From positions 1-64,000 of the forward strand of contig JACQUC010000268.1 of assembly GCA_016210495.1 (NCBI GenBank): a stretch of 64,000 bases of DNA, read 5' to 3'. Each line of letters starts with the position of its first letter. Within the stretch, counting starts at the first letter, position 1. This stretch comes from Chloroflexota bacterium (lineage in GTDB: Bacteria; Chloroflexota; FW602-bin22; JACPRP01). Below are positions 27,400-53,690 of this stretch, in pieces. Position numbers and translations under genes: made by a program. A model generated the notes under the pieces. The model searched no databases and was not told where the DNA came from. It saw only the letters and a program-made list of their open reading frames with translations.

Positions 27400-28605
27400 A
27401 TGACGGTCATTCGAACGCTGCTTGTGACCATCGCGGCCGCACTATTGGGAACTTTAGTTGCCTGCGCCCCGGCGGCTGTGCCGCCCACGCCCACAGTCGT
27501 TGCACCCAAGCCGGTTGCCACGTCTGCGCCGTCTCCTCCGTCTTCTCCGACGCCCGTCGCTGCTAAGCCTGCTGCGACCGCAGCGCCGCCAAGCGCGCCG
27601 ACGACAGCGCCTTCTGCCCTCGCCCAGGTCATCGAAGGGGCCAAGAAAGAGGGACAGGTGACCGTGTCGCTGACGGGGAACTTCACCAAGAAAGGGCTCG
27701 ACCGCCTCCGAGACGAGCTAAAACAAACCTACGGCTTCGACCTGCGGCTTGAATTCGAGCCGGCCACGAGTTATGCTGGAATGACCGCCAAGATCATTGC
27801 GGAGCACAAAGCAGGAGCCAAGTCCACTTACGACCTCATCCAGTCGTCCGACGTCAGCGTTTCTCAAGCCGTCGACGCGGGCGCCGTGCTGAAGGTGGAT
27901 TGGAAGCCCTTGCTTGCCCAGGGAACAGCCCCGGAGACCGTGCAGTGGGACGGGCACGCCCTCCAGATCTATAGCGGCCATGTGGGCCTCGTTTTCAACC
28001 CGAGGGTGATCCCGCCGAGCGAAGCTCCTAAGTCCTTCGTGGACCTGAGCAATCCCAAGTGGCAGGGCAAGATGACGATGAATAACAGCACCTCGAACAT
28101 CTTGAAGCGGGCCATCGTCCTGGGCGTCGATCGATCACTGTCCGATCTTCGCGCTGTGATCAAGAACCAGCCGGTGCTGGACACCTATGCCGCTATGACG
28201 ACGCGCTACCTATCGGGCGAGTACCCTCTGGGGGTCCTGATCGGCTCACCCTACTACGAGAACATTCGTCGCCAGAACTACCCTGTCGAGTGGCGCTCGC
28301 TGGATATCTCCGACCTGGCCTCTCACGTGATGCTGGTCTTGAAAAACTCCGCGCATCCTAACTCGGCAATGCTGGTGGCCTTGTTCATAGCCAGTCCGCA
28401 GGGCCGGAAACTGGTGCAAGAGGAAGCCAATGGGGGCAGCATATTCTACTCCGGCAACTACGAATACGAAATCCACCAGCAGGATGTGAAAGCAGGAATG
28501 AAGGTCTTCAGCGTCCAGGATTGGCCCGGCGCGAAGGACTTCCTGCAATCCGACAAGGGCAAGGAGGTCGATAAGGAGATCGGCGAGATCATGAAGGGCA
28601 GGTAG
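27400..28605 (+). CDS. Lipoprotein solute-binding protein, type A (SBP-1)
   Basis: 401 residues from ATG 27400 (AGGAGG upstream). A lipoprotein signal ends in LVAC (Cys22); a Pro/Ala/Thr linker runs to about residue 70; then comes a periplasmic-binding fold of the family-1 Fe(III)/AfuA-like kind (LAQVIEGAKKEGQVTVSLTG, YGFDLRLEFEPATSYAGMTA, SGHVGLVFNPRVIPP, KWQGKMTMN, GEYPLGVLIGSPYYENIRR). Secreted, lipid-anchored, binding an unknown solute. No permease or ATPase is nearby. It has the type A features shared with SBP-2 and SBP-6 (GLDRLRDELK-type helix; 'IHQQDVKAG' near the C-terminus). Confidence 0.92.
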   Translation: MTVIRTLLVTIAAALLGTLVACAPAAVPPTPTVVAPKPVATSAPSPPSSPTPVAAKPAATAAPPSAPTTAPSALAQVIEGAKKEGQVTVSLTGNFTKKGLDRLRDELKQTYGFDLRLEFEPATSYAGMTAKIIAEHKAGAKSTYDLIQSSDVSVSQAVDAGAVLKVDWKPLLAQGTAPETVQWDGHALQIYSGHVGLVFNPRVIPPSEAPKSFVDLSNPKWQGKMTMNNSTSNILKRAIVLGVDRSLSDLRAVIKNQPVLDTYAAMTTRYLSGEYPLGVLIGSPYYENIRRQNYPVEWRSLDISDLASHVMLVLKNSAHPNSAMLVALFIASPQGRKLVQEEANGGSIFYSGNYEYEIHQQDVKAGMKVFSVQDWPGAKDFLQSDKGKEVDKEIGEIMKGR

Positions 28606-28610
28606 AAGAC

Positions 28611-28676
28611 CTATTGCAGGTGCTCGCCCCATTTGGCGAGCACCTGCTGCTTCAGCTCGGGGCTGATCGTGATAGC
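28611..28676 (-). pseudogene. UbiD C-terminal relic
   Basis: A minus-strand frame reads AITISPELKQQVLAKWGEHL, then Q and stop (28611-28613). It matches the C-terminus of the UbiD at 44963-46417 (RISSELKQQVLSKWGDVLRA). It overlaps the 3' end of the FAD dehydrogenase gene in another frame, so the dehydrogenase was apparently joined onto the remains of a UbiD gene. A 13-bp stem (28616-28628/28635-28647) lies within this stretch. Confidence 0.7.
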
Positions 28677-30082
28677 GCTTCCAGCGCCGCATTCCTGCCT
28701 GCAATTCTGCCGAAGGTCAGCGCGGTTGCCAGGCCGGAAGCCATTGGTGCGTGGTAGCTCCCCTTGAAGCTGATAACGTCTCCCAACCTGTACTGCTTAC
28801 CGAAAGCCCAGTTGGCTATTACGCCCGCAGCATATAGGCCGGCGATGGGTCCGTTATCCTGATTCAGCACCTGGCATTTTGCGTTGATTTTTAGTCCCCC
28901 CAGCGGGTGGTTAAGGCCCGGGAGCACCGGATAGAAGGCATAAAACGGAGGCCTTTCGATCTTCGTCGCGTGCCGCGTCTTAGGCACAGGCAGCAGGTGC
29001 GCCTCACCTTGAGCTACTGCCAGGTTGAACTGCTTGATGGTGGCGGTGAAAGTGCGTGGATCTACTCCGATTTTCTCTGCCAGATGTTCGAGGCTCCGGG
29101 CTAACTGAATGGTTTTCTCCTTGTTGGGGTATTTCTTCCATTCGTCGGGAAAAGCGGCACGGGTAGCTTCGTCAAAAACAAGGGCAGCCTTGTGCCCTGG
29201 TTGGTAAACTATGGCATTTGCAATGGTATCGCTGTCGGCAGTGCCCTCGTCCAGGAAGCGCCGACATTCCATATTGAGGTAAATTCCCCTGGGATAGATG
29301 TTCTCCATCGCTCGACTGGGACCCCTGGCGTGCAGGGCGTCCATAGTTCGGACGTGGCAAGCGCTCACGTTAATCATCTGCGCTCCCAGCTTCACAGCCA
29401 TAATGTGGCCGTCGCCCGTATTGGTGGGACAGCCCGTGAGCACAGTGCCATAGGCCATCTCTGGCCCCGCGTACTTGACGAGCATTTCCTGGTTGCCCTG
29501 GAAGCCCCCTGTGGCCAGGACCACAGCGCCGCCATAGAACTCCGTTTCCCCCCGGGGTCCGCTGGCCTTCGCCCCTACGACCGCATTCCTGTGATCGGTG
29601 ATGAGCTCAGTTGCCCTCGTCTCAAAGTGGAGTGTCACCTTCCTCTTGGACACCTCTTTGATGAGGAAGCGGCACAGGCCCGGACCCATGCCTCTGATGC
29701 GTGTTGCTGAGACATAAGGGGCCCGCAGTTCGTCTCTCAGCCAGCGGCAGTCGTCCACGATTCTTTCCAGGTAGGCCCTGATGAGGTCGGGGTCGGCCTG
29801 TCCCCAGCTACGTTCCAGATGTTCTTCGAGTTGCTGCTCCACAGGAGCCTGGCTCTCGAAGCGGCCGAGTCCGGCTCCTCCGGACTTGGCCGTATCATTG
29901 CCCGGGCCGCCAGGCAGAACCGGAACCACCTTTTCTTCGGCCATAGACCTCAGCTTATCGATCACGGTCACCCTGGAGCCCGCGGCCACGGCCTCCAGCG
30001 AAGCGACCAAGCCCGCCATTCCCGCGCCAATAACCAGCACTTCACCCGACATGGCTCTTACGCTTTCTGACTTTCGTTGCAA
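28652..30082 (-). CDS. FAD-dependent dehydrogenase (fumarate reductase flavoprotein/TcuA-like)
   Basis: 476 residues. TTG 30082 has AGGAGG five bases upstream; the internal ATG 30052 has no SD. The N-terminal FAD site is VLVIGAGMAGLVASLEAVAAG; the capping and core motifs are GGAVVLATGGFQGNQEML, TNTGDGHIMAVKLGAQM, YAFYPVLPGLNHPLGGLKI and GLYAAGVIANWAFG. It belongs to the succinate dehydrogenase/fumarate reductase flavoprotein group (tricarballylate dehydrogenase, ketosteroid dehydrogenase). Cytoplasmic; the substrate is an unknown acid or ketone. It is transcribed divergently from LLM-1. Confidence 0.88.
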   Translation of the reverse strand: MQRKSESVRAMSGEVLVIGAGMAGLVASLEAVAAGSRVTVIDKLRSMAEEKVVPVLPGGPGNDTAKSGGAGLGRFESQAPVEQQLEEHLERSWGQADPDLIRAYLERIVDDCRWLRDELRAPYVSATRIRGMGPGLCRFLIKEVSKRKVTLHFETRATELITDHRNAVVGAKASGPRGETEFYGGAVVLATGGFQGNQEMLVKYAGPEMAYGTVLTGCPTNTGDGHIMAVKLGAQMINVSACHVRTMDALHARGPSRAMENIYPRGIYLNMECRRFLDEGTADSDTIANAIVYQPGHKAALVFDEATRAAFPDEWKKYPNKEKTIQLARSLEHLAEKIGVDPRTFTATIKQFNLAVAQGEAHLLPVPKTRHATKIERPPFYAFYPVLPGLNHPLGGLKINAKCQVLNQDNGPIAGLYAAGVIANWAFGKQYRLGDVISFKGSYHAPMASGLATALTFGRIAGRNAALEALSRSAPS

Positions 30083-30408: not shown

Positions 30409-31389
30409 ATGACCAGCATCAATATCGGCTTCAGGGTCGAAGGAATCGAGATCGTAGACTTCGTCCAGCGGGCGGACGAGCTGGGGTTCGAGTCCGTGTG
30501 GCTCCCCGAGGCCTCCACATTTGAGCCAGGCCTGTGCCTGGCCGCGGCCGCGGCCAAGAGTAGCCGCATCAAGCTGGGTACCTCGGTGACAGTGGTGCCA
30601 TACTACCATCCCTGGATATTGGCCCGGCGCGTGGTGACTTTGGACCATATCTCAGGCGGCCGCTACATCTTCGGCGTCGGGGTTGGCTGGCGACCACCGG
30701 AGTTTGAGGTGGCCGGGGTTCCTTTTAATGCCAGAGGCGCTTACACCGACGAGGCCGTGGGCATTATCCGCACTATCCTGACGGAGGGAAACATACACCA
30801 CGAGGGGCGGTTCTTCAAGATTCCGGAGCTGGTCGGTGAGTTCCCTCGGCCGATCCAGAAGCCCTATCCCCCGATTATGATCGGAGGCGGGGTGTCGGCT
30901 ATCCACAGGGAAAGGCCCGCCTGGCCGGGAGCGAGGCGCGCCGACCCGGAGGCAGCGCTGAAGCGCACAGCGCGATACGGCGACATCTATGCACCTCCGC
31001 CCTTCAACGACCTTCCCGCGTATCAGTATGCCTACGAGCAGGTGCTGAAATACGCCGCCGAGGAGGGCAGGAAGATGCCCGAGCGTTTTATGACGGTCAC
31101 GCTCAGCCCCGTGAACATCCAATCGACCGTCGATGAAGCCCTGGCTGACATCAGGACGCGGGACGAGCGGATGGGCAAATGGTGGAAGGGGGTCTACAGG
31201 TCGACCGGCAACCCTTCCCCGGAGGAGCGACAGAAGTTCGGTGCCGTGGGCCCTCCCGAGCGGTGCATCGAGCGGATCAAGGAGTTGGCGCGGGTGCCCG
31301 GGCTCCAGCGGGTAATCGTGGATTTCGTCTCCACCGACCAGTCGGAGCAGCTCGAGCGGTTCCATCAGGAGGTTGCACCGCATATCTAG
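30409..31389 (+). CDS. LLM-class flavin-dependent oxidoreductase (LLM-1)
   Basis: 326 residues behind GAGGAGG. A luciferase-like TIM barrel: GFRVEGIEIVDFVQRADELG, FESVWLPE, AAAAAKSSRIKLGTSVTVVP, GGRYIFGVGVGWRPPEFEVA, IMIGGG near residue 160. Members use FMN or F420 to oxidise or dehydrogenate small organics; the substrate is unknown. It is the most divergent of the four LLM proteins here, with extra sequence at 165-190 (RERPAWPGARRADPEAALKR). Its stop overlaps the convergent M24 gene's stop by four bases. Confidence 0.93.
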   Translation: MTSINIGFRVEGIEIVDFVQRADELGFESVWLPEASTFEPGLCLAAAAAKSSRIKLGTSVTVVPYYHPWILARRVVTLDHISGGRYIFGVGVGWRPPEFEVAGVPFNARGAYTDEAVGIIRTILTEGNIHHEGRFFKIPELVGEFPRPIQKPYPPIMIGGGVSAIHRERPAWPGARRADPEAALKRTARYGDIYAPPPFNDLPAYQYAYEQVLKYAAEEGRKMPERFMTVTLSPVNIQSTVDEALADIRTRDERMGKWWKGVYRSTGNPSPEERQKFGAVGPPERCIERIKELARVPGLQRVIVDFVSTDQSEQLERFHQEVAPHI

Positions 31390-32654
31390 ATGATAAGCCA
31401 ATGCATAGGCGTCCGGCTGAGTCGTCGGGCCCCCGAGGGAGTCACCAGGATCGGGTCTCCGACGTGAACACCCTGGCGCTGGTCCGTTGTCACCGCGTTG
31501 GGCTCGAATGCCAGCAGCATGCCGGGCTGCACGGGGATGGCCTCCAATCGCGTCTGGTGCTCCTGCCATCTGGCCATATCCTGCGCCTGGGCGAGCCTGC
31601 GGCCGGCAGGGGAGAAAGAGATAGGGTAGTTGGGATTGAGGCCGTGGTAATACGGCGTGATCGAGACGAACCCTGCCGCCTCGATGGGCCCGGCCATGGC
31701 CCGTGAGACGTCTCCAAAAGTGTTGCCGGGCTTGAGCACCTCAAGGCCCCTCTCGTAGGAAGCCAGGGCGGCGTCGAAGAGGCGTCCGTACAGTTCCGGC
31801 ATATGTCCTATCACGAGCGCGCGCTGGAACTGTGCCTCGTAGCCCCGGACAAAGGGGCTGTACTCGGTCAGAACGACGTGCCCCGGCTGTAGGATGTGGG
31901 TGTCTGGCACCCAAACGCCGTGAACCGGGCTGGGCCCGGCGTCCCACAGTACAAAGGGCGTGCCGGAGCCGTTTTCGAGCATCGAGTGTATCAGGTGAGC
32001 GTACACGGCGCGAGATGATACCCCGGCCTTGGCATACCCCGCCATCGCCTCGAAGGCCCGGTCGCCGATCTCCGCGGCTTTCTCGAGCAGCGCTACCTCC
32101 TCTTCGCTCTTGATCAGGCGGACATTCTCAATTAGGTCGGTCGCGTCCTCCCATGTCGCCGTGGGCAGGAGCTCGCTGCCGCGGCCGATCAGCACCCGCG
32201 CCGAGCCCCCCTCGGGCGTCAGCGCTCCCCCGGCGCCGACCACGCCGATTCGCCCGTTCTCCAGCCCCTGCTCCCGCAGCCGGTCTACCGTGGTCTTCGA
32301 CCAGGAGATAGGCTGTGATGCCGCCAGGATGTCCGGTACCCAGTCCTGCGACTGGCGCCACATTTCCAAATTGGCCAGGTTGCCGGCCATGTGCACAGTG
32401 ACCTCGCCATGTCGGGGAAAAATGACGAGGATGCCGCCGGCGCCCGGCAGATACACCGAGCTGATGTAGGCCGCGTTGCCCATGTCGCCCCACATCCCAA
32501 TGACCACTATGGCAAGGCAGTCAAGTCCTCTATCATCCATTTGCCGGCGGATCAAAGCCCAGCGCCGGTCCCTCTCCGCCAGGGACAATCGGGGCACGCG
32601 ATCCCCAACGGTGGTCCCTGATCTACTCTGCGCAACACCAGTGTTTTGGTCCAA
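31386..32654 (-). CDS. M24-family (creatinase-like) hydrolase, metal site altered (M24-1)
   Basis: 422 residues from TTG 32654, chosen because AGGAGG lies seven bases upstream and because the N-terminus (LSLAERDRRWALIRRQMDDR) then aligns with M24-2 and M24-3; the frame is open further upstream. It has a creatinase N-terminal domain followed by the pita-bread domain (RLIKSEEEVALLEKAAEIGD, FVLWDAGPSPVHGV, LTEYSPFVRGYEAQFQRAL, YYHGLNPNY, LLAFEPN). At the two metal Asp positions it has Glu and Gln, and the last metal Glu is Gly (VHVGDPILVT). It is therefore unlikely to be a metallo-aminopeptidase; a creatinase-type C-N hydrolase is more plausible. Confidence 0.87.
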   Translation of the reverse strand: MDQNTGVAQSRSGTTVGDRVPRLSLAERDRRWALIRRQMDDRGLDCLAIVVIGMWGDMGNAAYISSVYLPGAGGILVIFPRHGEVTVHMAGNLANLEMWRQSQDWVPDILAASQPISWSKTTVDRLREQGLENGRIGVVGAGGALTPEGGSARVLIGRGSELLPTATWEDATDLIENVRLIKSEEEVALLEKAAEIGDRAFEAMAGYAKAGVSSRAVYAHLIHSMLENGSGTPFVLWDAGPSPVHGVWVPDTHILQPGHVVLTEYSPFVRGYEAQFQRALVIGHMPELYGRLFDAALASYERGLEVLKPGNTFGDVSRAMAGPIEAAGFVSITPYYHGLNPNYPISFSPAGRRLAQAQDMARWQEHQTRLEAIPVQPGMLLAFEPNAVTTDQRQGVHVGDPILVTPSGARRLSRTPMHWLII

Positions 32655-32767
32655 TTGCCTGCCTCCTGTTCTGGAGTGCTTCGGCAACGTGCCGATCTGG
32701 CCAAATCGTCGGTTCAACAGCAGCCGGCACGTCGCCGCTTGCGGCAGAACCGGCCTCTGCTCAGCCC

Positions 32768-32796
32768 ACTGTAGCACATCACTTGTGCTTCATCAA
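32768..32796 (-). promoter_or_regulatory. Promoter of M24-1
   Basis: On the minus strand: TTGATG (32796-32791), 17-base spacer, TACAGT (32773-32768); leader about 105 bases to TTG 32654. Confidence 0.6.
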
Positions 32797-33073: not shown

Positions 33074-34303
33074 ATGTCAAGGCTCGCTTCTGGAAATTGC
33101 GTCGCCAGATCAAAGCCGGAAGTCGCTGTGTCTGCGCTTCTCCTGTGCATCTTGCTCGTGGTATTCGCCTGCGCCCCTGCCGCAAGTCCGCCAGCGCCCT
33201 CGCCAATCCCAGCAACGCCGACGTCGTCTCCTGCCAAAGCTACCACCGCACCTGCCCCAACGCCCGTACCTCCGGCCAAGCCCACCGCGGGCCCTGCCAC
33301 GAAGGCACCGCCGGCCGCTTTGACTCAGCTAATCGAGGGCGCCAAGAAGGAGGCCAAGGTCTCCACGACGCTGACGGACAACCTGACCGAGCAGGGTGTC
33401 CAGCGCCTGAGAAAGGAGATCAAAGAGAAGTTCGGCGTCGACCTGGAGATTCAGTTTGAGCCTGTTGGTAGCTATTCGGCCCGCCTCCCCCAGGCCATCG
33501 CGCAATACAAGGCCGAGGTGACGCCGACCTTCGACTTGATGCAGTCAAACGACCTCCTGATACGCCGCTACATCGATGCGGCGGTGATCGAGAAGCCGGA
33601 CTGGGGGCCCTTGCTGGCCGAGGGCACGCCTCGCGAAGTGATCATGTGGGACGGCTACGCTCTCTCGACGCAGACCAGCCATATCGGCATGATTTTCGAT
33701 CCCAAGGTTGTCCCGCCCGCCGACGCCCCGAAATCTCTCAGCGACCTGGCCAATCCCAGGTGGCGGGGCAAGTTCATTGGGCTGTCGGCTCCAAGCAGCT
33801 ACGTGAGCTACGCCTTCGTCAGAGGCGTTGACCGCACGCTGTCGGATCTTCGAGCAATGATTAAGAACGAGCCGGTAATCGAGACCTACGCGCGTGCGCT
33901 TACACGCTACTCCGCCGGCGAATACCCGATCGCGATGATATCGTCGAACTACCACGAGAATGCCCGCCAGCAAGGTGTCTCGGTGGAATGGCGGTCTCTG
34001 GATATGTCCTACCTCTCCGTCATCGGCGTAATGGTTCTTAAGCGTGCTGCACATCCCAACGCCGCGAAGCTGGTCGCCGCCTATCTTGCCAGTCCCGCCG
34101 GGCACAAGCTGATCCTCGAGGAGGCGAAGAACGGCAGCGCTCTCCATCCAGGCAACCCCGAATTCGAGAAACACCAGCAAGACGTCAAGGCAGGTCTGCC
34201 GCTCTTCAATCCAACGCAGTGGCCCGGGGCGGCGGATTTCCTCCTATCGGAGAAAGGGCAGCAGTTGGAGAAAGAGATCGCGGAGATACTTAAAGGAGGC
34301 TAG
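33074..34303 (+). CDS. Lipoprotein solute-binding protein, type A (SBP-2)
   Basis: 409 residues from ATG 33074 with GGAGGT seven bases upstream. Signal peptide with lipobox VFAC (Cys33), Pro/Ala/Thr linker to about 85, then the binding fold: LTQLIEGAKKEAKVSTTLTD, EQGVQRLRKEIKEKFGVDLE, FEPVGSYSARLPQAIAQYKA, TSHIGMIFDPKVVPP, KWRGK-type motif (NPRWRGKFIGL), GEYPIAMISSNYHENARQ. It is close to SBP-6 (shared VGSYSARLPQAIA) and belongs to type A. First gene of the SBP-2/LLM-2/M24-2/LLM-3/UbiD-1 operon. Confidence 0.93.
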   Translation: MSRLASGNCVARSKPEVAVSALLLCILLVVFACAPAASPPAPSPIPATPTSSPAKATTAPAPTPVPPAKPTAGPATKAPPAALTQLIEGAKKEAKVSTTLTDNLTEQGVQRLRKEIKEKFGVDLEIQFEPVGSYSARLPQAIAQYKAEVTPTFDLMQSNDLLIRRYIDAAVIEKPDWGPLLAEGTPREVIMWDGYALSTQTSHIGMIFDPKVVPPADAPKSLSDLANPRWRGKFIGLSAPSSYVSYAFVRGVDRTLSDLRAMIKNEPVIETYARALTRYSAGEYPIAMISSNYHENARQQGVSVEWRSLDMSYLSVIGVMVLKRAAHPNAAKLVAAYLASPAGHKLILEEAKNGSALHPGNPEFEKHQQDVKAGLPLFNPTQWPGAADFLLSEKGQQLEKEIAEILKGG

Positions 34304-34305: not shown

Positions 34306-35331
34306 TTGGTAGAAATCGATTTCAGAAAGTCCGCGTTTCCGCCCTCGGCCGAGCAGAACCGAAGCTACGTCGAGGAGTTGGATCGTTGTGGCTACGGCTT
34401 CTGGTATCCTCACACGATTGCGAGAGAGGTTCCGGCTCTCGATACGCTGAGCGTCCTGGCTGCGGCGGCCGAGCGCACGAGCAGAATCAAGCTGGGCACC
34501 GCGGTGCTTCAGATACCCTTGTACGCTCCCTTCGCTCTCGCGCAGGCCCTGATGAGTATCGACGTCATCTCGAACGGCCGACTTGTCTTGGGTGCGGGCA
34601 CCGGCTGGGTGCCAAAGGAGTTCGACAACCTGGGCGTTCCGTTCAAAGAGCGCGCGGGGCGCACGGACGAAGCCCTCGAGATCATCAAGCGTCTCTGGAC
34701 AGAGGAAGAGGTCAGCCACGAAGGCAGGTACTATGCCCTGCGCGAGGCAAGACTGATGCCGAAACCGGTGCAGAAGCCGCATCCGAAGATCCTCATCGGT
34801 GGCGTCTACAACGTTGGCCAGAGGGGGTATCCGGGCGAGAAGCCTCGACCCGAGTGGAGCGAGAGGGCCATCCGGCGTATCGCCAAAGTGGGCGATGGGT
34901 GGATAACGCCTCATAGCATCTCGCTCGACAGTGCGGTCGAGGTGCTGCAGGAAGCGTTGGAGAGAATCAGAGCCGCGGCGCGCGACTTGGGCCGCACCTT
35001 CCCCGACGACGAGTTCGAGTTGGTCGCCGAAACAGCTCCGTTCAACGTCAACGAGGACCGCGAGAAAGCCATCGAGGAGGCGCGGGAGTTCTACTTCTCG
35101 CGCTGGTCAGGCGGCTTCCTTCAGGTCGCGGGGAATCCATCCTTCGAGCACTTCCTGGCCGCCGGGCTGTGCGGCCCGGCAGAAGAGGTGGCAGCCTTCG
35201 TCCAGGGCTGGCTGGACGTCAAGAAAAGCGTCCCCGCGCTGAAGCGAATCCAGCTCAATCCCGCATCCGTCAGGCCCATCGAGCAACTGAGGAAGTTCCA
35301 CGAGCAGGTACGGCCGCTGCTGAGGCGGTGA
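34306..35331 (+). CDS. LLM-class flavin-dependent oxidoreductase (LLM-2)
   Basis: 341 residues from TTG 34306, with GGAGG at the end of SBP-2 as its SD. It begins VEIDFRKSAFPPSAEQNRSY. LLM motifs: LDTLSVLAAAAERTSRIKLG, NGRLVLGAGTGWVPKEFDNL, ERAGRTDEALEIIKRLWTEE, PKILIGGVYN, RIAKVGDGWIT, LCGPAEEVAAFVQGWLD. It is strongly similar to LLM-3 and LLM-4, which share the VEIDFR start and the PGEK(P/T) insertion. Flavin- or F420-dependent monooxygenase or dehydrogenase; substrate unknown. Confidence 0.94.
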   Translation: MVEIDFRKSAFPPSAEQNRSYVEELDRCGYGFWYPHTIAREVPALDTLSVLAAAAERTSRIKLGTAVLQIPLYAPFALAQALMSIDVISNGRLVLGAGTGWVPKEFDNLGVPFKERAGRTDEALEIIKRLWTEEEVSHEGRYYALREARLMPKPVQKPHPKILIGGVYNVGQRGYPGEKPRPEWSERAIRRIAKVGDGWITPHSISLDSAVEVLQEALERIRAAARDLGRTFPDDEFELVAETAPFNVNEDREKAIEEAREFYFSRWSGGFLQVAGNPSFEHFLAAGLCGPAEEVAAFVQGWLDVKKSVPALKRIQLNPASVRPIEQLRKFHEQVRPLLRR

Positions 35332-35354
35332 GTCCAAGATGGAGGTTGAAAGTC

Positions 35355-42219: not shown

Positions 42220-42226
42220 TCCAGCC

Positions 42227-43811: not shown

Positions 43812-44846
43812 ATGGTAGAGATCGATTTTCGCTGCGGCATTCTTGGCTCGACCGATAAGGTGCTGACCTTTGCTGAAGAAGTGGAGAACCTGGGTTACGG
43901 CGGTCTTTGGTTTAGCCATAGCGTTGGCCGAGACTTTCGCCGCCACGACACCTTGATGCTCCTGGCGGCCGTTGCCGCCCGCACCAGCCGCATCAAGCTG
44001 GGGACAGGCGTTTTCCAGGCTTGCCTCTATCCTCCCGTGGCTCTGACGCGCATGCTCACAACCATCGACCATCTGTCCAACGGGCGGCTCATGCTGGGCG
44101 TCGGCACCGGTTGGGTTCCTAAGGAGTTCGAGAACCTGGGCGTGCCGTTCCGAGAGCGAGCAGGTCGCACTGACGAAGCCCTGGAGATCATCAAGCGGCT
44201 GTGGACGGAGAAGGAAGTCACCTACGAGGGAAAGTATTACAAGATCAGGGAGGCAAAGCTCGACCCCAAGCCGGTGGCGACCCCGCACCCAAAGATACTG
44301 ATGGGTGGCGTCTACAATAAGGGACAGCGCGGCGCACCGGGAGAGAAGACGCCGAAGGTGTGGAGCGAGAAGGCGCTGCGGCGCCTTGCTCGATTTGCGG
44401 ACGGATGGGTTACCCCATCCTCGATTGACTTCGAGGATGCCCCCGAGGTGTTGCCGGAGGCAATGGAGCGGATAAAGGCTGCCGCAAGGGAAATAGGCCG
44501 CATCATTACCGACGAGGAGTTCATACTGGTAGCCGAGTCGGGCCCATTCAACATCGACGAGAGCAAGGAAAAGGCTCTCCAGGATGCCGAGCAGGCATAT
44601 CTGTATCGCACGGCCGGCGGCTTCTTCCAGGTAGCGGGGAACCCATCGTTTGAGCAGTTGCTGTCGGCCGGCGTCTGCGGCCCCGCCGAAGATGTGGCCG
44701 CCTTTGTGAACAAGTGGCTGGCCATGGGAAAGAGTGTCCCTGCGCTGAAGAGAATCCAGTTCAACATCGCCTCGACCGACCCAGTCGAGCAACTGCGGCG
44801 GTTTCACACCCAGGTTCGGCCGATGCTGACGGGCGCTGCCCCGTAG
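43812..44846 (+). CDS. LLM-class flavin-dependent oxidoreductase (LLM-4)
   Basis: 344 residues from ATG 43812 (GGAGG seven bases upstream). Begins VEIDFRCGILGSTDKVLTFA. It keeps the luciferase-like motifs (DTLMLLAAVAARTSRIKLGT, NGRLMLGVGTGWVPKEFENL, AGRTDEALEIIKRLWTEKEV, KILMGGVYNKGQRGAPGEKT, VCGPAEDVAAFVNKWL). It groups with LLM-2 and LLM-3 but is more distant from both than they are from each other. It lies between SBP-4 and UbiD-3. Confidence 0.94.
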   Translation: MVEIDFRCGILGSTDKVLTFAEEVENLGYGGLWFSHSVGRDFRRHDTLMLLAAVAARTSRIKLGTGVFQACLYPPVALTRMLTTIDHLSNGRLMLGVGTGWVPKEFENLGVPFRERAGRTDEALEIIKRLWTEKEVTYEGKYYKIREAKLDPKPVATPHPKILMGGVYNKGQRGAPGEKTPKVWSEKALRRLARFADGWVTPSSIDFEDAPEVLPEAMERIKAAAREIGRIITDEEFILVAESGPFNIDESKEKALQDAEQAYLYRTAGGFFQVAGNPSFEQLLSAGVCGPAEDVAAFVNKWLAMGKSVPALKRIQFNIASTDPVEQLRRFHTQVRPMLTGAAP

Positions 44847-46453: not shown

Positions 46454-46777
46454 GTAGAGACGACCCGGCGGGTCGTCTCACAGGGATCACGTTAAGGCCA
46501 ACGCCGATTTGGGGGGACACCGGCTGAAGACGCAGTTAGCGTAGGGGCGAACGGCGTTCGCCCGCGACGTTGGTGTGCAGATGTGAGAAAATCGGCGTGT
46601 ACACCGATGATGGAGCGTCGGGCCAATGTCTTTCACGCTGGACAGGTGTCTCGGTCGGATCGAGAGACGGGTTCGGGCGAACGCCGTTCGCCCCTACGAT
46701 ATGGTGGTCGAACGCCTATGGGCATAAGGGTTGGTAAGGCTGATAGCTACGAGACGACCCGCCCGGGTCGTCTCTGC
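46454..46777. repeat. Nested palindromic element C
   Basis: Outer ends: hairpin GAGACGACCCGGCGGGTCGT at 46458-46477 (within GTAG...TCTC) and its inverse at 46751-46774. Inner ends: GGGCGAACG/CGTTCGCCC hairpin at 46541-46563 and its exact inverse at 46675-46697, the same as in element B. The inner 111 bases resemble element B (GTTGG, GCAGATGTGAGAAA, AATCGGCGT, ACACCGAT). It fills most of the gap between UbiD-3 and SBP-5, and no gene is seen inside. Confidence 0.8.
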
Positions 46778-46892: not shown

Positions 46893-48107
46893 GTGAAATC
46901 GCCTAGTATCTCGAGGCGGCGCTACCGCGCCGTCAGCGCCATTATCCCGACGGTGGCAATCCTGCTCTTGCTCGCAGCCTGCGCCCCCGCGGCGGCGCCA
47001 CAGCCGGCGGCCACGGCAACCCCCGCGGCGCCACAGCCGGCGGCTACGGCAGTCCCTGCAGCGGCGCCCAAGGCACCGGTTGCCACTCCCACCGCGGTCA
47101 GCGCCGCTCCGGCGCCGAAAGCTATCAGCCCTGCCCTGGCCCAGGTCATTGAAGGGGCTAAGAAGGAGGGTAGGGTAACCGTCCAGTTGCAGTCGGGCGT
47201 CGAAGCCAAGCTTGTTAGGGAAGGGATCAAGAAGAAGTACGGGGTGGACTTGCAGATCGAGTCCCAGCCCAGCGCCAGCTACCCGGCCGCGCTGGCCAAG
47301 GCCCTAGCTGAGCAGAAAGCCGGTGCGGTGCCCAGCTATGATGTGTTGCCGCTGTCCGACACGACCTCGGTTGAAGCCGCCCGGGCCAACCTCGCCGAGA
47401 AGGTAGATTGGGAGCCCCTGCTGGCCCAAGGTACTCCTCGCGAAATGATCCAACTGGACGGCTATGGTGTCTCGGTGTTCAATAATCACGTCGGCATGGT
47501 CTACAACCCCAAAGTGGTTCCGCCTGCCGAGTCGCCGAAGTCTTTCACCGATTTGGGCAACCCAAAGTGGCGTGGCAAGATCGCCGCGTTCAACTACGCA
47601 AACCAGTATCTGCTCTACGCCTTTGTGAGAGGCGTCGATCGAACCCTCGCCGAGTTCCGGGCATTTATGAAGAACAGCCCTCCTATGGAGGTGTATGCTA
47701 ACGGCGCCACGCGGTATATGTCCGGCGAATACCCGATTATCTTCTCTACCTCGACCTACTACCTGGAAGCCCAGAAGGCAGGCGTGCCGGCGGAGTGGGC
47801 CTCGCTTGACGTATCCTGGGTGACCACGGCCATGTTTCACGCAATCAAGGGAGCCAAGAACCCGAATGCGGCCAAGCTCTTCATCGTGTTCCTGGCCAGT
47901 CCGGAAGGGCACAAGATCTACAACGACTCGGGTCGAGGCAGCATGTTCTATCCCGGCAGCGTCGAGTTCAAGATCAACGAGTTGGACGTGAAGGCAGGCC
48001 TGCCGATCTACGTTCCCATCAAATGGCCGGGCGCGATGGATTTCTATTTGTCCGAGAAGGGGCAACAGGCAATGGACGAAATCTCACGAATTATGAAAGG
48101 GGAATAG
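46893..48107 (+). CDS. Lipoprotein solute-binding protein, type B (SBP-5)
   Basis: 404 residues from GTG 46893, chosen because GGAGG lies seven bases before it; an ATG at 46869 has no SD. Lipobox LAAC (Cys30), a repeated APQPAATA linker, then LAQVIEGAKKEGRVTVQLQS, IKKKYGVDLQIESQPSASYP, VLPLSDTTSVEAARAN, FNNHVGMVYNPKVVPP, KIYNDSGRGSMFYPG. Closest to SBP-4. It follows element C and is followed after 66 bases by SBP-6, the only place where a type B and a type A binder are adjacent. Confidence 0.93.
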   Translation: MKSPSISRRRYRAVSAIIPTVAILLLLAACAPAAAPQPAATATPAAPQPAATAVPAAAPKAPVATPTAVSAAPAPKAISPALAQVIEGAKKEGRVTVQLQSGVEAKLVREGIKKKYGVDLQIESQPSASYPAALAKALAEQKAGAVPSYDVLPLSDTTSVEAARANLAEKVDWEPLLAQGTPREMIQLDGYGVSVFNNHVGMVYNPKVVPPAESPKSFTDLGNPKWRGKIAAFNYANQYLLYAFVRGVDRTLAEFRAFMKNSPPMEVYANGATRYMSGEYPIIFSTSTYYLEAQKAGVPAEWASLDVSWVTTAMFHAIKGAKNPNAAKLFIVFLASPEGHKIYNDSGRGSMFYPGSVEFKINELDVKAGLPIYVPIKWPGAMDFYLSEKGQQAMDEISRIMKGE

Positions 48108-48173: not shown

Positions 48174-49391
48174 ATGAACGCAATGTGCAGGATGTCCAAA
48201 ACGCGTTTCCTTTCGACCAGTGGCCTATTAGTCACCGTGCTGGCTGCGCTGCTCGCGGCGTGTGCCCCTGCCGCGGCACCCACGCCTGTACCAACGGCGC
48301 CGCCCTCGAAGCCGCCGGCCGCGACCGCGGCAACTCCCGCGGTGCCCCAGCCTACCCCGGCTCCAAAGCCGGCTCCTGTCTCAACCCCGGTGCCTACGAC
48401 CTCGCCGCTGTCTCAGATCGTCGACGCAGCCAGGAAAGAGGGCCGGGTGTCCTTGACCCTGTCCTCCGAGCTAGCGGGCAAGGGAATCGAGCGCCTCAAG
48501 AGGGATATCGGCGCGAAGTACGGCGTGGACTTGCAGATCGATTACCAGCCTGTGGGAAGCTATTCGGCCAGGCTCCCTCAGGCTATCGCGGAGTACAAGG
48601 CAGGAGCCACGCCCAGTTTTGACCTTATGGTCTCCTCCGACCTCTTGATCGGCCAGGCTATCGACGCGGGCATCGTGGAAAAGGTGGACTGGAAGCCGTT
48701 GCTGGCCCCTGGGACCGCGCCTGAAGCGATACAGTGGGATGGCCACGCCTTGACCACGCACACCGGACACATCGGCATGATATTCAACCCGAACGTGGTC
48801 CGTTCCGAGGACGCCCCGAAGTCCCTGGGGGACCTCGGCGACCAAAAATGGAAGGGGAAGATCATGGGCCTGTCGGCCCCGACTAGCTATCTAAGCTGGG
48901 CCGTCGTCAAAGGTGTCGACAAAACACTGGCCGACGTCCGCGCCATGATGAAGAACGACCCGGTGATAGATATTTACGCGCGCACTTTCACGCGTTACTC
49001 GACGGGAGAGTATCCTATTAGCCTGATCTCTTCAAGCTACTACGGAGGTGCCCGCGAAAAGAGCATTCCGGTGGGATGGCGGTCTCTCGATATGTCGTAT
49101 GTCTCGGTCCACGCGGTGTTGCTCCTGAAGCGAGCTGCACACCCCAGCGCGGCAAAACTGGTGGCCGCTTTCCTTGCCGGTCCGGATGGCCACAAATTTA
49201 TGGTCCAGGAGGCGAACAGCGGCACCATTTTCTATCCCAACAACCACGAGCAAGACATCCATCAGCAAGACCTGAAGGCTGGACTGCCTGTCTACACTCC
49301 ACAGCAATGGCCGGGAGCAAAGGATTTCCTCTCGTCAGACAGGGCCAAGCAAGTGGAGGCGGAAATCGGCCGCATACTGAAGGGCGAGTAG
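48174..49391 (+). CDS. Lipoprotein solute-binding protein, type A (SBP-6)
   Basis: 405 residues from ATG 48174 (CGGAGGGGG upstream). Lipobox LAAC (Cys30), Pro/Ala linker to about 90, then SQIVDAARKEGRVSLTLSSE, GIERLKRDIGAKYGVDLQID, YQPVGSYSARLPQAIAEYKA, HTGHIGMIFNPNVV, KWKGKIMGLSAPTSYLSWAV, NNHEQDIHQQDLKAGLPVYT. Type A; it pairs with SBP-2 over its whole length. Followed after 10 bases by M24-3. Confidence 0.93.
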   Translation: MNAMCRMSKTRFLSTSGLLVTVLAALLAACAPAAAPTPVPTAPPSKPPAATAATPAVPQPTPAPKPAPVSTPVPTTSPLSQIVDAARKEGRVSLTLSSELAGKGIERLKRDIGAKYGVDLQIDYQPVGSYSARLPQAIAEYKAGATPSFDLMVSSDLLIGQAIDAGIVEKVDWKPLLAPGTAPEAIQWDGHALTTHTGHIGMIFNPNVVRSEDAPKSLGDLGDQKWKGKIMGLSAPTSYLSWAVVKGVDKTLADVRAMMKNDPVIDIYARTFTRYSTGEYPISLISSSYYGGAREKSIPVGWRSLDMSYVSVHAVLLLKRAAHPSAAKLVAAFLAGPDGHKFMVQEANSGTIFYPNNHEQDIHQQDLKAGLPVYTPQQWPGAKDFLSSDRAKQVEAEIGRILKGE

Positions 49392-49401: not shown

Positions 49402-50661
49402 ATGCATGCAGAAAATCGACCCGAAGATTGGTATCCCACCCTTTCACTCGCCGAGCGCGACTGGCGCTGGACGAGGGTCAGGGACTTCATGACAAATCGG
49501 GCGCTGGATTGCCTGCTCATAGCTGGCCTGGCGAGCAAGGATCAGTTGCAGCAGTACGTGACCAACGACCATAGCGACGGGTACGTCATCTTTCCTTCTA
49601 AGGGTGAGCCGGTCATGCTCGTGTGGACCGCCTCCCGGGTTACCTCGCATCTCGACGCGGCCTCGAAAGGGGAGATACCGTGGGTGACCGACTCAAGAGT
49701 TGGGTCGAACGCTGCCACGGTAGTCAAGGTGATCCTTGAAAAAGGCCACGATCGCGCGACCATCGGCGTCGTCGGCCTTGGGGGACTGGGCGCGCGCCAA
49801 ACGGAGGGATGGATCCCGTACCGGGCGTGGGCGACGGTCCTCGAGGAGCTACCCGGCGCCAAGTTCATAGATGTCACCGAGGGCTTTTCGGAAGTGACCT
49901 TTGTCAAGAGCGAGGAGTCCTTGAAGGTCATTCGGCGGGCCGCTGAAGTGGGTGACCTGGCGGGTGAGGCCTTGCTGCACGTCACCCGCGCCGGCGTCAG
50001 GGAGAGCGACATCGCTGCCGCCGTTATGCAGGTGCTGTACAGGGAGGCCGCCGCCGGCGAACGGGCCTACATCATCCTCCACTCGGGTCCGCACAACCCC
50101 AGTTGGGGCCCACCGCTATGGCTGGTCCGGCCACAGCGACCTCGCGTTATCGAGGAGGGAGATATCGTCCAGGCGGAGATCTTTCCCTCCTTCGGCAGGC
50201 TCGAGGTTCAGTTGCAGATGTCCATCGCCGTCAGGCCCGTCAGTTCGATCAACGAGCAGTGCGCTCGCGTCGCCAGACAGTCGTATGAGGAGGGGCTCAA
50301 AGCCCTGCGACCCGGAATTGCGTTCGCCGAGGTGGTCGATGCGATGGCCAGGCCCCTGGCCGCTGCCGGCGCCTGGAATCTGACGCCTTTGATTCACAGT
50401 TTGAGCCCGATGCTTGCCATCGGTGGCAGAGGGGTGGGCCTGGAACAGTTGCCTGGAATCGACGGTTACAAAGGAATGCACTCTCTTTCGATTACCAGAC
50501 CTACGAGGGGGGATATGCTTGTCGAGCCGAACACGTTGTACGAGCTTGAGCCGAACGTTTGCCTCGGCAGCCATAGAGTCAACATCGGCGGCACCGTGAT
50601 CGTGACGGGAGAGGGCATCGAGGAGCTGAACAAGATCTCTGCGCGGATGCACGTAGTTTGA
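49402..50661 (+). CDS. M24-family (creatinase-like) hydrolase, metal site altered (M24-3)
   Basis: 419 residues from ATG 49402 with AGGAGG six bases upstream. Closest to M24-2 (TLSLAERDWRWTRVRDFMTN, QQYVTNDHSDGYVIFPSKGE, FVKSEESLKVIRRAAEVGDL, LHSGPHNPSWGPPLWLV, GDIVQAEIFPSFGRLEVQLQ, LYELEPNVCLGSHRVNIGGT). The metal positions again read Glu, Gln and Gly instead of Asp, Asp and Glu. In the same unit as SBP-6; cytoplasmic, no signal peptide. Confidence 0.9.
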   Translation: MHAENRPEDWYPTLSLAERDWRWTRVRDFMTNRALDCLLIAGLASKDQLQQYVTNDHSDGYVIFPSKGEPVMLVWTASRVTSHLDAASKGEIPWVTDSRVGSNAATVVKVILEKGHDRATIGVVGLGGLGARQTEGWIPYRAWATVLEELPGAKFIDVTEGFSEVTFVKSEESLKVIRRAAEVGDLAGEALLHVTRAGVRESDIAAAVMQVLYREAAAGERAYIILHSGPHNPSWGPPLWLVRPQRPRVIEEGDIVQAEIFPSFGRLEVQLQMSIAVRPVSSINEQCARVARQSYEEGLKALRPGIAFAEVVDAMARPLAAAGAWNLTPLIHSLSPMLAIGGRGVGLEQLPGIDGYKGMHSLSITRPTRGDMLVEPNTLYELEPNVCLGSHRVNIGGTVIVTGEGIEELNKISARMHVV

Positions 50662-50766: not shown

Positions 50767-50870
50767 CAGGCCGCTTGGCGGAATCTGCTGCCGGTTTGCA
50801 GCCTGAAGCGGTTGCTTTAGCGCCGCGACGCCAGTATTACCCAGAGATCTCCTAGCCAGAGTAATTCAGG

Positions 50871-53690
50871 TTGAACACGAAGCTCACAACGATCCGCCTC
50901 ACGATCAACGGCTCTCCTACCATCGCCGAGGTACCCGGCGACCTCACCTTGCTGCGCTTCTTGCGCGACGAGCTCCACCTGACAGGAACCAAGAACGGCT
51001 GCTCGCAGGGCGATTGCTGGGCCTGCACCGTGCTGATCGACGGCGTGCCCACGCGAGCCTGCCTGACCAAGGCTTCGTGCCTGGATGGCAAGACCATCCA
51101 AACCATCGAGAGCCTCGCTCGCGACGGCACGTTGCACCCTCTCCAGCGGGCCTTCGTCGACTACGGCGCCGTGCAATGTGGCTTCTGTACCCCGGGTATG
51201 ATTGTGCACGCTAAGTCTTTGCTCGACAGAAACCCCAGTCCGTCGGCGGAGGAAATAGTCTCCTCGATGGGCGATCACCTCTGCCGCTGCACCGGCTACG
51301 TGAGTATTGTCGAGGCGGTGCAGAGCGCCGCGAGGGTGCTGCGAGGCGCAAGGGCGCCGGAGGACGACTCCTATCGCGGCAAGGCCTACGGAGAGCAGAT
51401 TCTTGGCGCCCCTATCCACGACAAGGATGGAGCGGCCAGGGTCACCGGGCAGTTGAAGTTTGCGGACGATCTCTACTTCGAGGGCATGCTCTGGGGAAAG
51501 ATCCTTTTCGCCGGCCTGCCACACGCGGAAATCCTCTCGATAGATACCTCCGAGGCGGAGGCGATGGCGGGCGTTCGCGCTGTCCTCACCGCCGGGGACG
51601 TACGAGGGCCCAACCTTCTCGGGCAGTTCCCGCCTGATCGCCCGGTGCTTTGCAAGGACAAAGTGAGGCTGCTCGGGGATATGGTGGCGGCGGTGTTTGC
51701 TGATACCCTCAAGCAGGCCGAGCGGGCCGTCCGAAAAATCAGGGTCGAGTATCGCCCACTCGAGGTGATCAGCTCACCACAACGGGCGCTGGAGTCCGAT
51801 GCACCTCTGATCCACGCTCGCGGCAACCTGTTGAAGCACGCGACCATCAGAAGAGGAGACATCGCCAATGCCTTCGGCGCATCCAACGTGATTGTGGAAG
51901 GCCACTACGAGACGCAGTTCGTCGAGCACGCCTACCTGGAGCCCGAGGCGGGCGTGGCGCGACCGACTCCCGACGGAGGCGTCGAGGTCTACTTCCCCAC
52001 GCAGATGCCCTTCAACGCCCGCGCTGCCATTGCCAGAAACCTGGCGCTGCCCGAGGAAAAGGTGCGGCTGATCTCCACTCCGCTCGGCGGCGGATTTGGC
52101 GGTAAGATTGACATAACGTTGGAGGTCCTTCTTGCGCTCGGAGCGCTGCGTACGGGGCGTCCGGTCAAGATGACCCTGACCCGCGCCGAGTCGCTGCGCA
52201 CCAGCGGCAAGCGGCATCCTTACTCGATGGACTACAAGATCGGCGCACGTAAGGACGGTAGGTTGATGGCTCTTCAGGCCAGGGTGGTCGAGGACGCTGG
52301 CGGCTACGCCGGACTCAGCGCCGCGATTCTCGAACAGGCGCTAGTGTTTGCGGGAGGCCCCTACCGCTGGGCGAGCGTCCTCGTCGAAGGCTACGCGGCG
52401 AACACCAACAACCCCTCCGGAACGGCTTTCCGGGGTTTTGGCATCAACCAGGTCAACTTCGCGCTGGAATCGACCCTGGACGAGCTTGCACGTAAGCTTG
52501 GGATGGATCCGATTGAGTTGCGGCTGAAGAACGCGCTCAGGAACGGCAACCTCACCATCACTGGTGAGAAGCTCAAACGAGGGGTAGCCATCGGGGCTGT
52601 TCTGCGGGAGGCACGAAAAGCCCTAGCCGAGATGCGACCGATCCGGAGCGACAAGAGAATCGGTATCGGCGTCGCCGCCGGTCACAAGAATATCGCCAGC
52701 GGTCGGGGCGAGGTCAACACGGGCGGCGCTATCGTGGAGCTCCTGGAGAACGGCGAGCTGCTGGTGCGCTCGTCGGCGGTAGATATGGGCCAGGGCACGC
52801 GCACGGTTCTGGGGCAGATAGCCGCCGCGGCGACGGGCGTTGCCTACGACAGGATCGGCATCATAACCGGAGACACCGGCCTTGTCCCGCCGGGCAGCGG
52901 GGCGGTTGCCCAGCGACAAACCGTGGTGCACGGCAATGCCGTGCTCAGGGCGGCGAGTAAGTTCAGGGAAGCCCTTCAGACCTACGTCGCGCAGCAGTGT
53001 GGCATCGCCGCTGAGCGAGTCGGCATCGCGGGAGACTACGTCGTCGACACAGGCGCGGGCGGCCGCGTCCTGCTGAGCCTCGACGAGCTAGCTAGATTGA
53101 CGGCGTCGGAGGGCGAAGTGCTGCGCGCGGAGGCTCGCTACGACGGACCCCGTACGTATCCCATCAAGGGCGACGAGGAATCCGTCTATGTCAAATTCCG
53201 TGGTGCCACGTTCGACGCTCCAAAGGACGACTATCGCAATTATATCGACTACAACTACCAGGCGCAGGTCGCGGTTGTCGAGGTGGACGAGGCCACGGGA
53301 GAGGTCAGGCTACGTCGGATAATCTCGAGCCACGAGGTTGGTCGTGCCCTCAATCGCCAGAAGATAAAGGGCCAGTTAGAGGGCGCCGCGGTGATGGGCA
53401 TGGGCTACGCCCTCAGCGAGGAGTTCGTCGTCGTAAACGGGCTCTATCGCACCGTGACCCTGAAGAAGTGTGGCGTGCCGTCCATGCGCCAGACACCGGT
53501 AGTTGTGCTTCGCATAGTCGAGGACCCGACCAGCGAAGGTCCCTTCGGCGCCAAAGCGGTCTCCGAGGTGGCGATGGTGCCCACGGCGGCAGCCATCGCC
53601 AACGCCATCTACGACGCCGTCGGTGTGCGCGTAACCACGCTGCCGGCTACGAGGGAGAAGGTGCTGCGCGGGCTCTCTCGATCAGGTTAA
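50871..53690 (+). CDS. Fused xanthine-dehydrogenase-type molybdoenzyme (2Fe-2S + Mo subunits)
   Basis: 939 residues from TTG 50871; no better start exists and the N-terminus TTIRLTINGSPTIAEVPGDL matches the family. Residues 1-155 are the small subunit: ferredoxin cluster C44/C49/C52/C64 and the second cluster C103/C106/C138/C140 (CGFCTPGM, CRCTGY). Residues 175-935 are the molybdenum subunit (GAARVTGQLKFADDL, LGGGFGGKIDITLEV, TAFRGFGINQVNFALESTLD, AVDMGQGTRTVLGQIAAAA, EGPFGAKAVSEVAMVP with the catalytic-type Glu). The FAD subunit is absent from the polypeptide and its surroundings. Likely hydroxylates an N-heterocycle or aldehyde. Confidence 0.93.
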   Translation: MNTKLTTIRLTINGSPTIAEVPGDLTLLRFLRDELHLTGTKNGCSQGDCWACTVLIDGVPTRACLTKASCLDGKTIQTIESLARDGTLHPLQRAFVDYGAVQCGFCTPGMIVHAKSLLDRNPSPSAEEIVSSMGDHLCRCTGYVSIVEAVQSAARVLRGARAPEDDSYRGKAYGEQILGAPIHDKDGAARVTGQLKFADDLYFEGMLWGKILFAGLPHAEILSIDTSEAEAMAGVRAVLTAGDVRGPNLLGQFPPDRPVLCKDKVRLLGDMVAAVFADTLKQAERAVRKIRVEYRPLEVISSPQRALESDAPLIHARGNLLKHATIRRGDIANAFGASNVIVEGHYETQFVEHAYLEPEAGVARPTPDGGVEVYFPTQMPFNARAAIARNLALPEEKVRLISTPLGGGFGGKIDITLEVLLALGALRTGRPVKMTLTRAESLRTSGKRHPYSMDYKIGARKDGRLMALQARVVEDAGGYAGLSAAILEQALVFAGGPYRWASVLVEGYAANTNNPSGTAFRGFGINQVNFALESTLDELARKLGMDPIELRLKNALRNGNLTITGEKLKRGVAIGAVLREARKALAEMRPIRSDKRIGIGVAAGHKNIASGRGEVNTGGAIVELLENGELLVRSSAVDMGQGTRTVLGQIAAAATGVAYDRIGIITGDTGLVPPGSGAVAQRQTVVHGNAVLRAASKFREALQTYVAQQCGIAAERVGIAGDYVVDTGAGGRVLLSLDELARLTASEGEVLRAEARYDGPRTYPIKGDEESVYVKFRGATFDAPKDDYRNYIDYNYQAQVAVVEVDEATGEVRLRRIISSHEVGRALNRQKIKGQLEGAAVMGMGYALSEEFVVVNGLYRTVTLKKCGVPSMRQTPVVVLRIVEDPTSEGPFGAKAVSEVAMVPTAAAIANAIYDAVGVRVTTLPATREKVLRGLSRSG

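What the first reader, a model, noticed from the sequence alone, without database searches (positions are those of the whole stretch)
27400..53690. Two SBP sequence types segregate with two different enzyme families
The six lipoprotein binders split by sequence. Type A (SBP-1, -2, -6) has a '(G/E)xxRL(K/R)xxI' helix and, in SBP-2 and SBP-6, VGSYSARLPQAIA. Type B (SBP-3, -4, -5) has IxKKYGVDLQI plus KIYND(S/T)G. Type A genes lie with M24-fold genes (SBP-2 operon, SBP-6/M24-3, SBP-1 in the FAD/LLM-1/M24-1 block). Type B genes lie with UbiD genes or, for SBP-5, directly after UbiD-3. This suggests co-evolved capture-and-degrade cassettes in which the binder specifies the substrate class handled by the enzyme.
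Basis: partly seen in the sequence, partly recalled or inferred. Interest (0 to 1): 0.75.

Follow-up and report, generated by a model that had tools for sequence, protein, structure and literature searches.

The report
Paralogous binding proteins beside catabolic enzymes
Six related nutrient-binding lipoproteins in one stretch of a Chloroflexi genome do fall into two real families, but the idea that each family goes with its own kind of degradative enzyme does not hold up; the apparent pairing looks like a leftover of local gene duplication.

Summary
The six lipoprotein binders are real. They form two well-supported sister clades: A = SBP1/2/6 and B = SBP3/4/5 (100/97 and 100/99). The quoted motifs are present with one small exception, though the type A "RL" helix is ancestral, not diagnostic.

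The enzyme half fails. The tightly packed run headed by type A SBP2 holds both an M24 and a UbiD gene. Type B SBP5 and type A SBP6 lie 66 bp apart in front of M24-3. UbiD1 and UbiD2 are 81% identical, yet one ends the SBP2 run and the other directly follows SBP3. Only immediate adjacency to UbiD separates A from B (2 of 20 labelings as extreme). In relative G002, two binders have both M24 and UbiD within 3 kb, and binder–UbiD pairings are not kept.

All three UbiD-to-type-B gaps carry nested inverted repeats, 40 of the window's 51 exact 16-mer inverted seed pairs. I read the B/UbiD link as tandem duplication of a [UbiD–repeat–SBP-B] module. A and B may still bind different ligands. A/B neighbours in other genomes could not be seen. 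Ordinary paralogue expansion; low to moderate interest.

The parts
27400..28605 (+). SBP1, type A lipoprotein binder (SBP_bac_6)
   Evidence: Pfam; tree; start taken at Met27 before the lipobox
28652..30082 (-). FAD_binding_2 flavoprotein, convergent with SBP1 (46 bp); longest ORF given
   Evidence: Pfam; gap
30409..31389 (+). LLM1, luciferase-like oxidoreductase
   Evidence: Pfam; only 34-36% identical to LLM2-4
31386..32777 (-). M24-1, pita-bread hydrolase, 30-32% identical to M24-2/3; divergent from SBP2; longest ORF given
   Evidence: Pfam
33074..34303 (+). SBP2, type A; heads the run SBP2-LLM2-M24-2-LLM3-UbiD1
   Evidence: Pfam; gaps
34306..35331 (+). LLM2
   Evidence: Pfam
35346..36629 (+). 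M24-2 (start approximate, TTG); 70% identical to a G002 protein
   Evidence: Pfam
36649..37677 (+). LLM3, 77% identical to LLM2
   Evidence: Pfam
37682..39130 (+). UbiD1, last gene of the SBP2 run (gap 4 bp); 81% identical to UbiD2
   Evidence: Pfam
39124..39528 (.). Nested inverted repeats in the UbiD1-SBP3 gap (43-nt outer arms, 30-nt inner arms)
39565..40776 (+). SBP3, type B
   Evidence: Pfam; tree
40777..42219 (+). UbiD2, follows SBP3 with gap 0
   Evidence: Pfam
42224..42541 (.). Nested inverted repeats in the UbiD2-SBP4 gap; 42306-42507 is 79% identical to 46535-46744
42572..43765 (+). SBP4, type B
   Evidence: Pfam; tree
43812..44846 (+). LLM4, 61-63% identical to LLM2/3
   Evidence: Pfam
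44963..46417 (+). UbiD3, 38-41% identical to UbiD1/2
   Evidence: Pfam
46464..46766 (.). Nested inverted repeats in the UbiD3-SBP5 gap
46893..48107 (+). SBP5, type B (GTG start); 475 bp after UbiD3, 66 bp before SBP6
   Evidence: Pfam
48174..49391 (+). SBP6, type A; 10 bp before M24-3
   Evidence: Pfam
49402..50661 (+). M24-3, 51% identical to M24-2
   Evidence: Pfam
50871..53690 (+). Fused molybdenum hydroxylase (Fer2 + MoCoBD, xanthine-dehydrogenase type), 209 bp after M24-3
   Evidence: Pfam

Best explanation
This is a catabolic gene array of a Chloroflexi bacterium. It carries an expanded family of lipoprotein receptors of the ferric/metal-citrate binding-protein fold, next to luciferase-like oxidoreductases, UbiD decarboxylases, M24 hydrolases and a molybdenum hydroxylase. 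The receptors split once into two clades (shown). The clades probably bind different small organic acids or their metal complexes (inferred). The association of type B with UbiD is mainly a trace of tandem duplication of a [UbiD - inverted-repeat element - SBP-B] module inside one co-directional array (inferred from the repeated junctions). M24 and UbiD genes are shared within runs and are not alternative partners. The receptors would deliver ligand to an ABC permease and ATPase encoded outside the window, of the kind that relatives encode near their binders (inferred). Type does not dictate enzyme family.
For: Two clades, 100/97 and 100/99. Mixed runs and gaps. UbiD1 and UbiD2 81% identical but placed with an A run and a B gene. 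UbiD and SBP trees disagree. G002: UbiDs of L132 and L117 82% identical beside binders 24% identical (the L117 binder is an outgroup row of the tree); binders of L125 and L127 77% identical beside UbiDs 36% identical. G002 loci L119 and L120 have both M24 and UbiD within 3 kb of one binder. The three UbiD-to-SBP-B gaps all carry nested inverted repeats: 40 of 51 exact 16-mer inverted seed pairs of the window; 19 of 20 Markov controls had none, one had one. J4/J5 share 210 bp at 79%; J3/J4 share 196 bp at 78%, of which about 148 are UbiD coding and the rest gap. A permease with two BPD_transp_1 stretches and an ABC ATPase lie near binders in G001, and a permease in G002. No permease or transport ATPase appeared among the 30 window proteins scanned with Pfam, of 56 ORFs picked, or by tblastn of three permeases and one ATPase (best E 0.13). 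Models of SBP6 and SBP4 (pLDDT 95.1, 94.7) both match metal-citrate protein MctA first.
Against: UbiD adjacency is clustered on the SBP tree: 3 changes against 5.6 in shuffles, 1 of 500 shuffles as low; part of this comes from outside the window (L125 and L127; 39 of 500 without the window). Strict adjacency does put UbiD with 3 of 3 B and 0 of 3 A. The inverted repeats could have inserted independently rather than been copied. If the gaps of 296-475 bp are old promoters rather than insertions, the units are smaller than I assume. The J4/J5 identity covers mostly the repeat itself, and most of the J3/J4 identity is coding.
Confidence: 0.6

Rival explanations
1. One reading: co-evolved capture-and-degrade cassettes, type A binders for M24 substrates and type B binders for UbiD substrates (aromatic acids).
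For: A and B are clades. Immediate UbiD neighbours: B 3 of 3, A 0 of 3. UbiD adjacency is clustered on the tree (1 of 500 shuffles) and M24 adjacency weakly so (29 of 500). A and B differ at the position that aligns with MctA Ser26 (A: T/T/S/T; B: Q or H in 7 of 8). SBP2/SBP6 are sisters and M24-2/M24-3 are 51% identical.
Against: SBP2's run contains UbiD1; the SBP5-SBP6-M24-3 run mixes types. UbiD1/2 are 81% identical across types. Pairings not kept in G002. M24 within two genes is random on the tree (211 of 500 shuffles). Only six genes in one array, not independent.
Confidence: 0.17
2. A receptor pool: many interchangeable binders feed one ABC permease/ATPase, and gene neighbours say little about ligand.
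For: No permease or transport ATPase found in the window beside six binders (30 of 56 ORFs scanned; tblastn). In G001 contig C162 five binders (four of them in the tree) lie within 7.2 kb, interrupted by one LLM gene, with one permease and one ATPase on that side; the other half of the contig has two more permeases and an ATPase.
Against: The rest of the window's contig was not readable, so private permeases may exist. M24 genes are enriched near the family in G002 (P 0.0001), so neighbours are not random.
Confidence: 0.18

Closest known systems
FbpA/HitA and MctA-type (ferric iron / metal-citrate) ABC solute-binding proteins, Pfam SBP_bac_6 and SBP_bac_8
   Same: Same fold and family: MctA is the first match of both models, about 21% identical; HitA is the best sequence match.
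   Different: The adjacent tyrosine pair of HitA (iron-ligand role recalled) is not kept: as HMMER aligns it 0 of 6 binders have both tyrosines; with a shift of one residue 3 of 6 do (SBP1, 5, 6). It does not follow type.
Paralogue expansions of catabolic enzymes in SAR202 Chloroflexi (PMC6946804; search listing and 12 found passages seen)
   Same: Many paralogous flavin-dependent monooxygenases (COG2141) in Chloroflexi, read there as widening of substrate range.
   Different: Here the expanded family looked at is the binding protein; the passages I saw name dipeptide-transport COGs (0747, 0601, 1173) but no binders of this family. I did not read the whole paper.
UbiD-family decarboxylases (phenylphosphate carboxylase beta type)
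   Same: UbiD1-3 score best against TIGR02724, phenylphosphate carboxylase beta.
   Different: All three are below its cut-off and reach no equivalog cut-off, so no substrate can be named; UbiD1 alone of the three passes the general subfamily cut-off TIGR00148 (266.5 against 244.85).

Membership tests
SBP_bac_6 / SBP_bac_8 solute-binding proteins | Pfam score above the curated cut-off | tested here: met
   Six of six pass PF13343; five of six pass PF13416 (SBP1 25.2 against 27)
SBP_bac_6 / SBP_bac_8 solute-binding proteins | Two-lobed fold of the ferric/metal-citrate-binding group | tested here: met
   Two of the six modelled: SBP6 and SBP4, pLDDT 95.1 and 94.7, TM about 0.75 to MctA
Ferric-binding FbpA/HitA | Adjacent tyrosine pair at the iron site (recalled) | tested here: not met
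   HMMER alignment: 0 of 6 have both; shifted by one residue 3 of 6 (SBP1, 5, 6), with YH in SBP2, MY in SBP3, YL in SBP4
ABC importer | Permease and ATPase with the binder | tested here: inconclusive
   None found in the window (30 of 56 ORFs scanned; tblastn); present near relatives; rest of contig not readable
   SBP2 run has both; SBP5/SBP6 share one run with M24-3
   SBP4+SBP5 are sisters (99/95), UbiD1+UbiD2 are sisters (100/100)
   no neighbourhood of P0005-P0010 could be reached
   needs purified proteins

The most novel reading that the evidence does not exclude
The nested inverted repeats found in front of all three type B binders and none of the three type A binders are a working part: a recurrent insertion and recombination site by which binder genes are copied next to different UbiD genes, or an RNA hairpin that sets binder expression apart from the enzymes. 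Receptor diversification would then be driven by a small mobile element.
Probability: 0.15. Interest if true: 0.55.

Novelty: new member of a known kind. Interest (0 to 1): 0.3.

Why it matters
If type predicted enzyme, binder sequence alone could be used to guess substrates in uncultured bacteria. The evidence here says that would mislead: neighbours are shuffled and mixed. What may be useful is the expanded binder family itself, found beside diverse catabolic enzymes in three other genomes, and the repeat elements at the junctions as a possible route of amplification.

Tried and rejected
In some searches only about 4-6 candidates per genome were scored, at E limits of 1e-40 to 1e-60. Viral contigs: no relative. 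Plasmids: 10 records, 26-30% identity in the five rows shown. Rfam on 26000-54500: one sub-threshold match. Sigma-70 promoter scan (1 found, 4.1 expected) and terminator scan (15 found, 13.6 expected) of 33000-51000 not informative. Paper searches: searches returned no paper; others (10 of 32 listed; 6 of 11 listed) listed nothing to the point and none of those was read.

Rejected: LLM adjacency as the shared partner. It clusters outside the window (5 of 500), but G002 has no LLM match at E 1e-15, so genome membership explains it. UbiD enrichment near the family in G002: 5 of 89 within 3 kb, 2.0 expected, P 0.054; within 5 kb P 0.16, not convincing.

Rows not counted: the 15 database proteins without context, L133:2 and L138:163 (contig edges), five outgroup rows; and, left out of the tree, fragments L134:9497 and L135:9967 and eight distant binders. 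Neighbour states were coded by hand; the M24 beside L122:323 is a partial frame at a contig end.
Full report
WHAT IS THERE. The window (61.7% GC) appears to come from a 108,598-bp contig; the three named proteins with that contig length (P0005, P0006, P0010) are called Chloroflexi bacterium MAG by their sources. Four window-encoded binders are listed with that contig length too, while P0005, P0006 and P0010 are not in the window. That all seven share one contig is inferred from the equal length. Pfam gives, from 27.4 to 53.7 kb: SBP1, an FAD enzyme (-), LLM1, M24-1 (-), SBP2, LLM2, M24-2, LLM3, UbiD1, SBP3, UbiD2, SBP4, LLM4, UbiD3, SBP5, SBP6, M24-3 and a fused molybdenum hydroxylase. All six binders have a lipobox before C-A-P-A-A.

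THE TWO TYPES ARE REAL. In a 52-row tree (window, protein-database relatives, G001, G002, G1010, five of them outgroup rows) A = SBP1, SBP2, SBP6, P0006 (100/97). B = SBP3, SBP4, SBP5, P0005 and P0007-P0010 (100/99). The two are sisters (97/93); the 50-row tree has the same two clades. The best diagnostic is a one-residue deletion shared by 8 of 8 B rows and none of the other 13 rows of alignment A2. The RL helix named for A is ancestral, because P0011-P0014 outside A+B have RLK or RLR too. In 35 alignment columns A (4 rows) and B (8 rows) share no letter, gaps included. One is the column that the HMMER alignment pairs with MctA Ser26, a site mutated in an MctA entry (title; alignment): T/T/S/T in A, H or Q in seven of eight B rows with V in the other. 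The outer rows P0011-P0014 have H there. Different ligands for A and B are thus plausible, not shown.

THE ENZYME SPLIT IS NOT. Gaps (M24-2 start taken as the TTG at 35346) give tightly packed runs: SBP2-LLM2-M24-2-LLM3-UbiD1; SBP3-UbiD2; SBP4-LLM4-UbiD3; SBP5-SBP6-M24-3, with the molybdenum hydroxylase 209 bp on. SBP2 (A) therefore heads a run with both enzyme families, and SBP5 (B) and SBP6 (A) share a run. Over all 20 labelings of the six genes, the split is as extreme in 2 for UbiD as immediate neighbour, 8 for M24 as immediate neighbour, 8 and 20 for UbiD and M24 within two genes, and 20 for both by run. UbiD1 and UbiD2 are 81% identical and LLM2 and LLM4 63% identical, yet they stand with binders of different type. 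Trees: UbiD1+UbiD2 with UbiD3 apart (100/100), but SBP4+SBP5 together (99/95) and SBP3 with P0005 (90/75).

OTHER GENOMES. Three genomes with close members and readable neighbourhoods were found: G001 (a Tectomicrobia MAG), G002 (labelled Desulfobacterales) and G1010 (in the class of G003, a Dehalococcoidia MAG), after 297, 291, 400 and 393 genomes, with few candidates scored per genome. None holds A or B proper. The nearest, G001 L111, 55% identical to SBP6, has no UbiD, M24 or LLM match on its 17.9-kb contig. In G002 binders stand beside UbiD, M24, FAD enzymes, an amidohydrolase, an S15 hydrolase, an adenine deaminase or an AMP-binding enzyme; 10 of the 17 coded G002 rows have a UbiD or M24 within two genes or an FAD gene adjacent, 7 do not. 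In G1010 both binders stand beside FAD enzymes. Hand-coded neighbours of 30 rows on the tree: UbiD adjacent, 6 rows, 3 changes against 5.6 in shuffles, 1 of 500 shuffles as low; without the window 39 of 500. M24 adjacent: 29 of 500 for all rows. UbiD within two genes: 26 of 500. M24 within two genes: 211 of 500. FAD adjacent: 185 of 500. LLM adjacent: 24 of 500. So UbiD adjacency does follow the tree somewhat, but SBP3-5 are one tandem array and count as three. In G002, 4 of 12 M24 genes lie within 3 kb of a family member (0.28 expected, P 0.0001) and 5 of 89 UbiD genes (2.04 expected, P 0.054) (genome size rounded to 4.8 Mb, 20 binder places including fragments). Two of those binders, L119 and L120, have both. 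Pairing is loose: UbiDs of L132 and L117 are 82% identical beside binders 24% identical (the L117 binder is one of the outgroup rows); binders of L125 and L127 are 77% identical beside UbiDs 36% identical.

JUNCTION REPEATS. The gaps before SBP3, SBP4 and SBP5 are filled by nested inverted repeats (39124-39528, 42224-42541, 46464-46766). Of 51 exact 16-mer inverted seed pairs within 500 nt in the window, 40 fall in the 500-bp bins of these three gaps and 11 near 63.7 kb; 19 of 20 Markov controls have none and one has one. No such pair is in front of SBP1, SBP2 or SBP6. The looser search also lists a 75% palindrome inside UbiD2. J4 and J5 share 210 bp at 79%. J3 and J4 share 196 bp at 78%, about 148 of them UbiD coding and the rest gap, plus 39 bp at the far end at 87%. 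Subtracting the lengths of these elements, the gaps from SBP2 to M24-3 would be about 116 bp or less, except about 170 bp before SBP5. I infer duplication of a [UbiD-repeat-SBP-B] module, which makes the B/UbiD link historical. Independent insertion is not excluded.

FUNCTION. Models of SBP6 (A) and SBP4 (B) are confident (pLDDT 95.1, 94.7). Both match MctA first; further down come a Campylobacter binder, PotD, HitA, FutA and others. Binders of citrate-like or metal-carboxylate ligands are therefore the best guess, but the match is about 21% identical, and HitA's tyrosine pair is not kept. No permease or transport ATPase was found in the window (30 of 56 ORFs scanned; tblastn); relatives have a permease with two BPD_transp_1 stretches and, in G001, an ABC ATPase with TOBE domain near binders. 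The M24 proteins score best among NCBIfam models against PepQ (M24-1) or ectoine hydrolase (M24-2, M24-3), all far below cut-off. By alignment and recalled ligand positions they lack the usual di-metal aspartates, so they may act like creatinase or ectoine hydrolase. No substrate is named.

VERDICT. Two real paralogue clades; no demonstrated rule from type to enzyme; ordinary expansion with an unexplained set of junction repeats.

Noticed in passing
39124-39528, 42224-42541, 46464-46766: Nested inverted repeats with arms of 26-43 nt in the three gaps in front of type B binders; apart from a weak palindrome inside UbiD2 (41906-41957) no other pair of 20 nt or more is listed in the 27-54 kb cluster; two of them share a 210-bp stretch at 79% identity.
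   Followed up: partly
63764-63874: A further 34-nt inverted repeat (91% complementary, 43 nt apart) near the window's right end.
   Followed up: no
G002 (genome of L002): 89 UbiD-family matches in a 4.8-Mb MAG, and 17 in the 2.9-Mb G001: a very large UbiD expansion.
   Followed up: no
L112 and L113 (G001 contig C162): A 28-kb array of binders, luciferase-like enzymes, one UbiD, a MutL-like protein and ABC permease/ATPase genes, similar in kind to the window's array but in a genome labelled Tectomicrobia.
   Followed up: partly
L120:1409-14076: G002 locus with a 70% identical M24-2 relative, a second M24, two UbiDs, an FAD enzyme and one family binder within 13 kb.
   Followed up: partly
61186-62829 (-): UbiD4, 27-28% identical to UbiD1-3, with no binder of this family beside it.
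   Followed up: no
L121:11465-12508: A cas1 gene directly upstream of a family binder in G002.
   Followed up: no
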